Origin: Actinomycetospora sp. TBRC 11914
GTDB taxonomy: Bacteria > Actinomycetota > Actinomycetes > Mycobacteriales > Pseudonocardiaceae
Direction: 5' to 3'
Length of the DNA: 64,000 nucleotides
Assembly (NCBI RefSeq): GCF_012933465.1
Contig: NZ_JABBND010000003.1
Span: 186,001 to 250,000, forward strand
Below, piece after piece: positions 10,585 through 12,902 of the stretch (position 1 is the stretch's first letter; each line of letters begins with the position of its first letter). The translations under genes and the position numbers were made by a program. The notes below the pieces were generated by a model, which made no database searches, was not told where the DNA came from, and saw only the letters and a list, made by a program, of their open reading frames with translations.

Positions 10585-11379
10585 CTAGTCCAGGTCGAGG
10601 ACCGACTCCAGGCCGACCGTGAGCCCGGGCCGCGACGACACCGACCGCACGGCCAGCAGCACGCCGGGCATGAACGAGGCCCGGTCGAGCGAGTCGTGCC
10701 GGATGACCAGCGTCTCCCCCGCCGTGCCGAGCATGACCTGCTGGTGCGCGACGAGCCCCGTCATCCGGACCGCGTGGACGTGCACCCCGTCGACGACGGC
10801 GCCGCGGGCGTGGTCGGGGTCGTGCGTGGTGGCGTCGGGGCTCGGGCCGAGCCCCGCCGACGACCGCGCCTCGGCGACCATCTGCGCCGTGCGGGTGGCC
10901 GTGCCCGACGGCGCGTCGGCCTTGTTCGGGTGGTGCAGCTCGACGATCTCCACGGAGTCGAAGAACCGGGCCGCCTGCGCGGCGAACCGCATCGACAGCA
11001 CGGCCCCGATCCCGAAGTTCGGCACCACCATGACGCCGAGCTCCGGCTTCGGCTCGAGCCAGCCCCGGATCGTGTCCAGCAGTTCGGGGGTGATCCCGCT
11101 GGTCCCGACGACGCAGTGGATGTTCTGGTCGATGCAGAACCGGATGTTCTCCGCGACGGTCGAGGGGTGGGTGAAGTCCACCGCGACCTGGGTGTCCGCG
11201 TCGGCCAGCGAGAACAGCCAGTCGCCCTGGTCGACCATCGCGACCAGGTCGAGGTCCTCGGCGCCCTCGACGGCCCGGCACACCTCGGCGCCCATGCGGC
11301 CCCGCGCCCCGAGCACGCCGACCCGGGTGACGTCGTCGTCCACGGGCAGGTCCGCGGCGGCTGCCGCTCCCTCACTCAT
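10585..11379 (-). CDS. dapB: 4-hydroxy-tetrahydrodipicolinate reductase
   Basis: DapB reduces 4-hydroxy-tetrahydrodipicolinate with NAD(P)H in the lysine/meso-diaminopimelate pathway, needed for peptidoglycan. The dinucleotide fold starts [19 protein letters not shown], and the substrate/catalytic motif [15 protein letters not shown] carries the essential His-His and Lys. At 264 residues it is family-length. The start ATG at 11379 overlaps the stop of the last of three tandem micro-ORFs, each with its own GGAG-containing sequence, linking it to the M16 peptidase gene upstream. Part of the rpsO-pnp-pepR-dapB order conserved in actinobacteria. Confidence 0.96.
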
Positions 11380-11417
11380 CCGGTCCAGCTCCGCTCCGCT
11401 TCGTGTCCCCCGGTCAT
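11376..11417 (-). CDS. Micro-ORF 3 of the dapB leader (13 codons)
   Basis: ATG at 11417 to TGA at 11376, encoding [13 protein letters not shown]. Its ATG overlaps the stop of micro-ORF 2 and its TGA overlaps the dapB ATG. It looks like a relay for terminating ribosomes rather than a functional peptide, but translation is not proven. Confidence 0.4.
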
Positions 11418-11455
11418 CCGGTCCAGCTCCGCTCCGCTTCGTGTCCCCCGGTCAT
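11414..11455 (-). CDS. Micro-ORF 2 of the dapB leader (13 codons)
   Basis: ATG at 11455 to TGA at 11414, encoding [13 protein letters not shown], identical to micro-ORF 3. It is linked to micro-ORFs 1 and 3 by four-base ATGA overlaps. Confidence 0.4.
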
Positions 11456-11493
11456 CCGGTCCAGCTCCGCTCCGCTTCGTGTCCCCCGCTCAT
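11452..11493 (-). CDS. Micro-ORF 1 of the dapB leader (13 codons)
   Basis: ATG at 11493 to TGA at 11452, encoding [13 protein letters not shown]. Its ATG overlaps the TGA of the M16 peptidase gene at 11490-11492, so a ribosome finishing the peptidase could restart here and then at each following ATGA until dapB. The single residue difference from micro-ORFs 2 and 3 comes from one base. Confidence 0.4.
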   Translation of the reverse strand: MSGGHEAERSWTG

Positions 11494-12902
11494 CCGGCCA
11501 CCTCGCGCAACTCGTCGGGGAGATCGTCGGCGTCAGCGTAGGGCCCGACGACGGCCGCGGTCACCGGCGTCGAGAACAGCTCGGCGGCCAGCGTCGCGAC
11601 GTCGTCGCGGGTGACCGCCTCGATGCGGGCCAGCGAGTCGGCCAGGTCCAGCGAGGCCCCCCGGCCGTCCAGCTCGCGGCGCCCGAGCCAGCTCATGCGC
11701 GACGACGTGTCCTCCAGCCCGAGCACGTACTCGCCGCGCAGCTGGCCGCGGGCGCGGACGAGCTCGGCGTCGGTGACCCCGCCCCGCGCCAGGTCGGTGA
11801 GCTGCTCGCGCAGCACCCCGGCGGCCGTACCCAGCCGCTCGGGCGCGCAGCCGACGTACACCGAGAGCACACCGAGGTCGGAGTAGCCGGCCGCGGACGA
11901 GTACACCGAGTACGCCAGCCCCCGCCGCTCCCGGATCTCCTGGAAGAGCCGCGAGCTGGTGCCGCCGCCGAGCACCGTCGACAGCACGAGCTGCGCGGCC
12001 CAGCGGGGGTCGCCGCGGCGCACCGAGGGCACGCCGAGCATCAGGTGGGCCTGCTCGGTGTCGTCCTCGCGCACCACCAGCCGGTCCGCCGGCAGCGGCG
12101 GCGTGACGGCCGCGTCGGGACGGACCCACGCCGGGCCGGGCGCGAGCCGGTCGCCGAACCCGGCGACGACCGCCTCGAGGACGGCGGCGTGGGTGACGTT
12201 GCCCGCGACGGCGAGCACCGACCGCGACGGCACGTAGTGCGCGGCGTGGAACCGGGCGATGACGTCGCGGGTCATCGCGCCCACCGACTCCTCGGAGCCC
12301 ACCACCGGGCCGCCCAGCGGGTGGGCGCCCAGCAGGAGGTCGTCGAAGTCGTCGGCGAGCAGGTCCTCGGGGTCGTCGTCGCGCCCGGCGATCTCGGAGA
12401 GCACCACGTCGCGCTCGACCTCGACGTCCTCGGCGGCCATGACGCCCTCGAGCACCACGTCGCACACGACGTCGACCGCGAGCGGCATGTCCGCGTCGAG
12501 GACGTGGGCGTAGAAGCAGGTGTGCTCCTTGGTGGTGAACGCGTTGAGGTCACCACCGACCGCGTCGATCTCCTCGGCGATCTGCCGGGCGGAGCGCCGC
12601 GGGGTGCCCTTGAACAGCAGGTGCTCGAGGAAGTGGGCGGCGCCGCGCGACGCCGGGTCGAACCCCGGCTCGTCGCGCGACCCGACGTCGACCCACAGCC
12701 CGACCGAGGCCGACCGTGCCCCCGGGACGTGCTCGGTGACCACCCGCAGGCCCCCGGGGAGCACGGTCCGTGCCACCCCGGGAGCCGGATGCTGGGTCTC
12801 CGCGGCAAGCCGTTCCGGCACCACACGCTCCTCCGTCGCGTGTGCCGCCGGCGTGCGGCGCCGCGCCTGCTGGGTCTCCGCGGCAAGCCGTTCCGGCACC
12901 AC
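11490..12902 (-). CDS. M16 family zinc metallopeptidase (PepR-like)
   Basis: A 470-residue insulinase-type peptidase with the inverted zinc motif H-x-x-E-H as HFLEHLLFKGT at about residues 90-100 and the distal Glu region some 75 residues later. The C-terminal M16 domain includes the R/Y-type segment RGLAYSVYSS. It probably degrades short peptides in the cytoplasm; the family gene follows pnp in most actinobacteria (PepR). The GTG at 12902 follows GGAGGAGCGT at good distance. Residues 2-27 and 28-53 are encoded by a 78-bp tandem duplication, so a second equally good Shine-Dalgarno and GTG lies at 12824, in frame; the protein could start at either and lose 26 residues. Stop overlaps micro-ORF 1. 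Confidence 0.88.
   Translation of the reverse strand: MVPERLAAETQQARRRTPAAHATEERVVPERLAAETQHPAPGVARTVLPGGLRVVTEHVPGARSASVGLWVDVGSRDEPGFDPASRGAAHFLEHLLFKGTPRRSARQIAEEIDAVGGDLNAFTTKEHTCFYAHVLDADMPLAVDVVCDVVLEGVMAAEDVEVERDVVLSEIAGRDDDPEDLLADDFDDLLLGAHPLGGPVVGSEESVGAMTRDVIARFHAAHYVPSRSVLAVAGNVTHAAVLEAVVAGFGDRLAPGPAWVRPDAAVTPPLPADRLVVREDDTEQAHLMLGVPSVRRGDPRWAAQLVLSTVLGGGTSSRLFQEIRERRGLAYSVYSSAAGYSDLGVLSVYVGCAPERLGTAAGVLREQLTDLARGGVTDAELVRARGQLRGEYVLGLEDTSSRMSWLGRRELDGRGASLDLADSLARIEAVTRDDVATLAAELFSTPVTAAVVGPYADADDLPDELREVAG

What the first reader, a model, noticed from the sequence alone, without database searches (positions are those of the whole stretch)
11376..11497. Relay of three 13-codon micro-ORFs, made by tandem repeats, joins the M16 peptidase gene to dapB
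Three 38-bp direct repeats each hold a GGAG-rich stretch and an ATGA. Read on the minus strand, the peptidase stop overlaps the start of micro-ORF 1, whose stop overlaps the start of micro-ORF 2, and so on until the last stop overlaps the dapB ATG. The 42-nt ORFs overlap by 4 nt, which is exactly why the repeat period is 38. A non-multiple of three is kept functional by the ATGA overlaps. It may tune lysine/peptidoglycan precursor synthesis through repeated termination-reinitiation, and copy number could vary by slippage.
Basis: partly seen in the sequence, partly recalled or inferred. Interest (0 to 1): 0.75.

Follow-up and report, generated by a model that had tools for sequence, protein, structure and literature searches.

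The report
Mobile repeat keeps operon translation coupled
A short repeat scattered through the genomes of one bacterial genus has inserted, and been tripled, between two overlapping genes so that three tiny reading frames can hand the ribosome from one gene to the next, much as the MIRU repeats of mycobacteria are thought to do.

Summary
In detail: three 38-bp units join the M16 peptidase gene to dapB, each a 13-codon micro-ORF overlapping its neighbours by 4 nt. The reading as a dapB-specific dial is not supported. The unit is one copy of a dispersed element (consensus GGASACGNAGCGGAGCGGAGCTSGACC): 51 copies in this genome at up to 3 mismatches, present in 18 of 18 genomes of the genus (Actinomycetospora) and in 1 of 115 sampled genomes of other genera of the family. 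The other 17 genomes of the genus have no unit at this junction; the two nearest have a bare 4-nt overlap. The element builds the same relay at other operon joints (hisF-hisI, acyl-CoA carboxylase beta-epsilon, gap-pgk, an ABC transporter, ArsR-Fur). At the dapB joint of two other species it is instead an in-frame N-terminal extension. At beta-epsilon the number of units varies from 0 to 3, in six genomes through a different, local 29-bp repeat. Best reading: a REP-like mobile repeat lands on coupling sites and survives where stop/start overlap is kept. Closest known case: mycobacterial MIRU. Translation of the micro-ORFs and tuning of DapB are inferred, not shown.

The parts
11490..12764 (-). 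M16 peptidase gene, upstream partner; its TGA (11492-11490) overlaps the ATG of micro-ORF 1. Start uncertain (ORF open to 12902).
   Evidence: own gene caller; Pfam M16
11452..11493 (-). micro-ORF 1, [13 protein letters not shown]
11414..11455 (-). micro-ORF 2, [13 protein letters not shown]
11376..11417 (-). micro-ORF 3, [13 protein letters not shown]; its TGA lies in the ATGA of dapB
11458..11484 (-). copy 1 of the 27-nt dispersed element core (C/G subtype)
11420..11446 (-). copy 2 of the element core
11382..11408 (-). copy 3 of the element core
11490..11497 (-). left CCGGATGA; with 11376-11383 a probable target-site duplication (single CCGGATGA at the junction in G010 and G006)
11376..11383 (-). 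right CCGGATGA
11389..11392 (-). GGAG of unit 3, 9 nt upstream of the dapB ATG: possible Shine-Dalgarno carried by the element
   Evidence: pairing energy of the 20 nt upstream of dapB with the anti-SD -10.0 kcal/mol, against -11.1 (G010) and -7.1 (G006) at unit-free junctions and a mean of -5.5 for 200 random 20-mers of the M16 gene
10585..11379 (-). dapB, downstream partner

Best explanation
A short, REP-like dispersed repeat of the genus Actinomycetospora inserted at the 4-nt ATGA where the M16 peptidase gene ends and dapB begins, duplicating about 8 bp of target including the ATGA. Element plus duplication adds 38 bp, which is 2 mod 3, so the old start codon now opens a 13-codon micro-ORF that closes on the duplicated ATGA. 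Tandem amplification then made three units. Both proteins stay unchanged and a terminating ribosome always finds a start codon overlapping its stop, so translational coupling from M16 to dapB is kept for any whole number of units. The peptide is a by-product; stop/start overlap is what selection keeps. Shown by sequence: the relay, the dispersed family, unit-free relatives, the same relay at other junctions. Inferred: mobility, target duplication, translation of the micro-ORFs, selection on coupling.
For: Family: 51 copies in this genome at up to 3 mismatches, 0 for the reversed-pattern control; 18 of 18 genus genomes, 1 to 162 copies each, controls 0. Young array: at M16-dapB 1 of 18 genus genomes has units; nearest relatives G010 and G006 have a bare ATGA (tree). 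Other relays: 19 of 71 junction loci examined at four gene pairs (dapB 1 of 18, beta-epsilon 12 of 17, gap-pgk 5 of 18, hisF-hisI 1 of 18), and in 71 of 71 a chain of overlapping stops and starts reaches the downstream gene (68, the other 3); hisF-hisI, gap-pgk, ABC, ArsR-Fur and ACC_epsilon partners confirmed by Pfam. Frame control: the 19 relays with 2 bases added fail in 11. Two frame solutions at one site: relay here, in-frame N-terminal extension of DapB in G001 and G008. Decay without loss of frame: G009 unit at beta-epsilon is barely recognisable yet 38 nt; G013 unit at gap-pgk is 53 nt and still a relay. Own plus G002 census: of 34 element sites just after an upstream sense gene, 6 have no start at the stop; of the other 28, 8 are relays through the element, 19 in-frame extensions, 1 not connected. 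Target duplication: 25 of 129 sites have a flank match of 6 or more, against 9.7 for permuted flanks.
Against: No expression or ribosome data. Most insertions (71 of 129) lie in sense inside genes, so coupling sites are not the element's special target. If the default added length is 36 bp, as in most tandem arrays seen, in-frame extensions need no selection on coupling; relay against not-connected is then only 8 to 1. Adding one base leaves all 19 relay junctions connected, 11 of them by in-frame extension, so only one of three phases is harmful. Four of the gene pairs were chosen because a relay had been seen there. Many sites have no recognisable target duplication, no transposase was found: Y1_Tnp 0 in this genome, and other mobilisers were not sought.
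Confidence: 0.68

Rival explanations
1. Neutral scar: the repeats sit at the junction and dapB is translated from its own ribosome site (the GGAG of unit 3). The micro-ORFs are open only because the element lacks stops, and the relay has no function.
For: The element core is open in the frames used here and carries several GGAG; possible SD at 9 nt, anti-SD energy near the unit-free values. Elements lie in sense in or between co-directional genes at 94 of 115 sites with a clear orientation, many far from junctions (25 internal in sense).
Against: Broken phase is rare: 1 of 28 junction sites with a start at the stop; 71 of 71 ortholog junctions connected, including a decayed unit and one with 15 extra bases.
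Confidence: 0.2
2. Expression dial: unit number sets the fraction of ribosomes that reach dapB, and slippage lets the cell tune lysine/peptidoglycan precursor supply.
For: Unit number varies at beta-epsilon: 0 in 5, 1 in 5, 2 in 3 and 3 in 3 of 17 genomes, with G004 holding a fused 29+59 chain counted under 2 as 2 micro-ORFs. Reinitiation is usually thought incomplete (general knowledge).
Against: At dapB there is one array in one genome; the same element sits at unrelated genes and in no pathway-specific pattern seen; no within-species variation could be looked at.
Confidence: 0.1
3. DNA- or RNA-level element: the repeat acts as a protein-binding or structured site, and its place at the junction is incidental.
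For: Positions 3 and 22 of the core covary (G/C 174, C/G 21 of 198 distinct copies), positions 4 and 21 weakly (A/T 180, G/C 4): an inverted-repeat foot.
Against: No fold better than shuffles for a typed consensus as DNA (z 0.49) or for the array as RNA (z 0.59); no Rfam match at 10500-13000; no sigma-70-type promoter or terminator pattern at 11300-11800.
Confidence: 0.04

Closest known systems
MIRU (mycobacterial interspersed repetitive units), e.g. senX3-regX3
   Same: Dispersed repeat, apparently mobile, inserted at a start codon so that an ORF inside the repeat is coupled to the gene with -4 nt spacing (passages of PMC12548453); tandem units in an operon junction, three 77-bp or two 77-bp plus one 53-bp (passages of PMC4213456); 77 and 53 are both 2 mod 3, like 38, 35 and 29 here.
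   Different: Other genus, core of 27-28 nt instead of 53-77 bp, many copies inside genes, a covarying inverted-repeat foot. No sequence comparison with MIRU was made. Supply et al. 1997 was not available; I know it only as a cited reference and from recall.
REP elements / small dispersed repeats
   Same: 20-40 bp, dispersed, up to 162 copies per genome, imperfect inverted repeat (REP size from the abstract of PMC3733652 in a search listing).
   Different: Mostly intragenic and in sense; no RAYT-type transposase domain in this genome; no significant predicted hairpin.
Rickettsia palindromic elements (RPE)
   Same: Insertion in frame inside protein genes (passages of PMC2229807).
   Different: RPE are 105-146 bp with long stem-loops (same passages); the relay form is not described in the passages seen.
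Coupled short upstream ORFs and synthetic 'nonsense' ORFs that feed a downstream gene
   Same: Short ORF whose peptide does not matter and whose stop lies next to the next start (abstract of PMC13255528).
   Different: Single engineered ORF in E. coli, not a natural repeat array.

Membership tests
MIRU | ORF inside the repeat overlaps the adjoining start/stop by 4 nt | tested here: met
MIRU | dispersed through the genome | tested here: met
MIRU | sits at start codons / coupling junctions | tested here: inconclusive
   true for some sites; 71 of 129 sites are inside genes in sense
MIRU | sequence homology to mycobacterial MIRU | not tested
   no MIRU sequence was compared
MIRU | found in mycobacteria, units of 53-77 bp | tested here: not met
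   Actinomycetospora, 38-bp unit
REP | palindromic hairpin | tested here: inconclusive
   covarying foot, no significant predicted fold
REP | partner RAYT (Y1_Tnp) in the genome | tested here: not met
   0 matches in the window's genome; often absent for REP as well (recall)
REP | extragenic | tested here: not met
   87 of 129 sites lie inside called genes
RPE-like in-frame insert | in-frame insertion in protein genes | tested here: met
   71 sense sites in called genes with open frames

The most novel reading that the evidence does not exclude
The genus uses micro-ORF relay units as countable couplers: at selected operon joints (carboxylase beta-epsilon, gap-pgk, M16-dapB) the number of units, gained and lost in whole steps that never break frame, sets the translation ratio of the two genes. 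Two different repeats (the dispersed 38-bp unit and a local 29-bp unit grown from the accE 5' end) converged on the same device at the same junction.
Probability: 0.15. Interest if true: 0.8.

Novelty: new variant of a known kind. Interest (0 to 1): 0.55.

Why it matters
It suggests that MIRU-style insertion into translational-coupling sites is not peculiar to mycobacteria but can arise from a different, much shorter repeat, and that a stop/start overlap is a place where a genome can take up extra DNA without changing either protein. The orthologous junctions with 0, 1, 2 and 3 units are a natural series for asking whether one ribosome can pass through several terminations and restarts in a row, and at what cost. 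Such micro-ORFs are below usual annotation limits.

Tried and rejected
Hairpin or RNA switch: no fold better than shuffles, no Rfam match. Promoter in the repeat: none of the sigma-70 type. RAYT-driven REP: no Y1_Tnp in this genome. Conserved peptide: the element is read in all three frames in sense genes (48, 18 and 5 of 71) and relay peptides differ. The 29-bp beta-epsilon unit as a second dispersed family: rejected, its 16 matches in 6 of 18 genomes all lie at that junction. The 78-bp repeat upstream of M16 as a second relay: no start overlaps the pnp stop. The element flag printed is too loose (it marks L034, which has no unit) and was not used; the loci of other genera in that call were not interpreted. 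In one search the relays reported for L248 (73 codons) and L299 (29 codons) may be chance; there 8 of 23 sites between two sense genes were relays in the true phase, 2 with one base added and 1 with two. In the family survey of beta-epsilon (30 of 60 genomes read) two hits (L365, L378) do not clearly reach the accE frame. Gene calls for the census come from a codon-usage script of mine, not from a published caller, and sites shared by descent between the two genomes were not removed.

Full report
Observation. On the minus strand the M16 peptidase gene ends at 11490 and dapB begins at 11379. Between them lie three 38-bp units, each a 13-codon ORF whose ATG overlaps the previous stop and whose TGA overlaps the next ATG. 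Units 2 and 3 are identical, unit 1 differs by one base. Pfam confirms both genes.

Where the unit comes from. Its core is one copy of a dispersed element. In the window's own genome the pattern GGASACGNAGCGGAGCGGAGCTSGACC occurs 51 times with up to 3 mismatches and its reversed control 0 times. With up to 2 mismatches it is in 18 of 18 genomes held for the genus, 1 to 162 copies each, controls 0. In a family sample of 120 genomes, 5 of which belong to the genus, only 1 of the other 115 has it, with 3 copies. Record titles of DapB relatives name the genus Actinomycetospora; the length of G002 contig C27 equals that of an A. chiangmaiensis DSM 45062 contig. In 198 distinct copies the bases at core positions 3 and 22 covary (G/C 174, C/G 21, other 3) and positions 4 and 21 weakly, as expected for an inverted-repeat foot, although predicted folding is no better than for shuffles. 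Flanks match over 6 or more bases at 25 of 129 sites against 9.7 for permuted flanks, which fits target duplication at some sites; the clearest are ATGGGTGA (L196), TGACCACG (L209) and CGGGGAGCG (L268). No Y1_Tnp transposase is in this genome.

The dapB junction in relatives. All 18 genus genomes have M16 followed by dapB with a start overlapping the M16 stop. Seventeen have no micro-ORF; this genome alone has three (17 of 18 loci, L040). Nearest relatives G010 (95% DapB identity) and G006 (92%) have a bare ATGA (tree). G001 and G008 carry the element at the same junction, but the added length is a multiple of three and it reads as an N-terminal extension of DapB (VTIPETERSGSST..., VTPPETERSVSST...). 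One junction thus shows two ways of taking up the element without losing the overlap.

Other junctions. In this genome and G002 I found single-unit relays at hisF-hisI, carboxylase beta-epsilon, solute-binding protein-permease (in both genomes, with different units), DUF2339-exonuclease (8-nt overlap), ArsR-Fur and gap-pgk, and a leader micro-ORF made from a duplicated start codon before a phosphoesterase gene (Pfam). I then read four junctions across the genus: M16-dapB 18 loci, beta-epsilon 17 (one genome without a match), gap-pgk 18, hisF-hisI 18. In 71 of 71 a chain of overlapping stops and starts reaches the downstream gene (68, 3). Micro-ORFs are present in 1, 12, 5 and 1 of these. At beta-epsilon six genomes have the 38-nt unit (one of them twice) and six have a 29-nt unit in two or three copies; the 29-nt unit occurs only there (16 matches in 6 of 18 genomes) and resembles the 5' end of accE in G004. 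In G004 one unit carries an extra base, which fuses two units in frame (periods 29 and 59), and the chain still closes. A decayed unit in G009 keeps 38 nt, and a gap-pgk unit in G013 has grown to 53 nt and still closes.

Controls. Adding one base to the first unit of the 19 relay junctions left all connected (8 relay, 11 in-frame extension); adding two bases left 11 of 19 unconnected. In the census of 129 sites in this genome and G002, 34 lie just after a sense gene: 6 have no start at that stop, 8 are relays through the element, 19 are in-frame extensions, 1 is not connected. If the three phases were equally likely one third should be unconnected. Two limits: most tandem arrays have a 36-bp period, so in-frame extension may be the default outcome without selection, and then the contrast is 8 relays to 1 unconnected; and the four ortholog junctions were picked because a relay had been seen. 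Orientation is strongly biased: 94 sites in sense, 21 in antisense, 14 unclear of 129.

Interpretation. The data fit a REP-like mobile repeat that is tolerated where it does least harm: in frame in genes, near protein ends, and at overlapping stop/start sites in a phase that keeps a start at every stop. The element brings GGAG near its 3' end; the 20 nt upstream of dapB pair with the anti-SD about as well as at unit-free junctions (-10.0 against -11.1 and -7.1 kcal/mol; random 20-mers of the M16 gene mean -5.5). Because 38 is 2 mod 3, any whole number of units leaves the relay intact. Translation of the micro-ORFs, their efficiency and any regulatory use are not shown.

Comparison with the literature. 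A 2025 review describes MIRUs as apparently mobile repeats that insert at start codons with an inner ORF coupled at -4 nt spacing (passages of PMC12548453), and another paper gives the senX3-regX3 units as 77 and 53 bp (passages of PMC4213456); both lengths are 2 mod 3. The principle is therefore known. I did not find a description of this element or of such relays outside mycobacteria, which cover only openly licensed papers; Supply et al. 1997 itself was not available.

Noticed in passing
window 12790-12946 (-): Exact 78-bp tandem duplication between pnp (ends 12959) and the M16 gene; in frame with the longer M16 ORF (26 residues repeated). No start overlaps the pnp stop, so it is not a relay of this kind.
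   Followed up: partly
window 667-693 (-): Another copy of the element at the start of a gene (L226); G002 has a copy at what looks like the same gene start (L289).
   Followed up: partly
window 30052-30220, 46171-46371, 46823-46987: Other long tandem repeats (units of 92, 75 and 87 bp), not examined.
   Followed up: no
L329, L334, L335, L338-L340, L342: Carboxylase beta-epsilon junction is a hot spot of micro-ORF relays, with a local 29-bp unit in six genomes of the genus.
   Followed up: yes
L380, L385, L388: In other genera of the family the same beta-epsilon junction holds micro-ORFs of other sizes (83+83, 83 and 35 nt) with GTGA/ATGA overlaps.
   Followed up: partly
L191 and L292; L326 and L330: Apparently orthologous copies have the C/G foot in one species and the G/C foot in the other: either compensatory change or replacement of the copy.
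   Followed up: no
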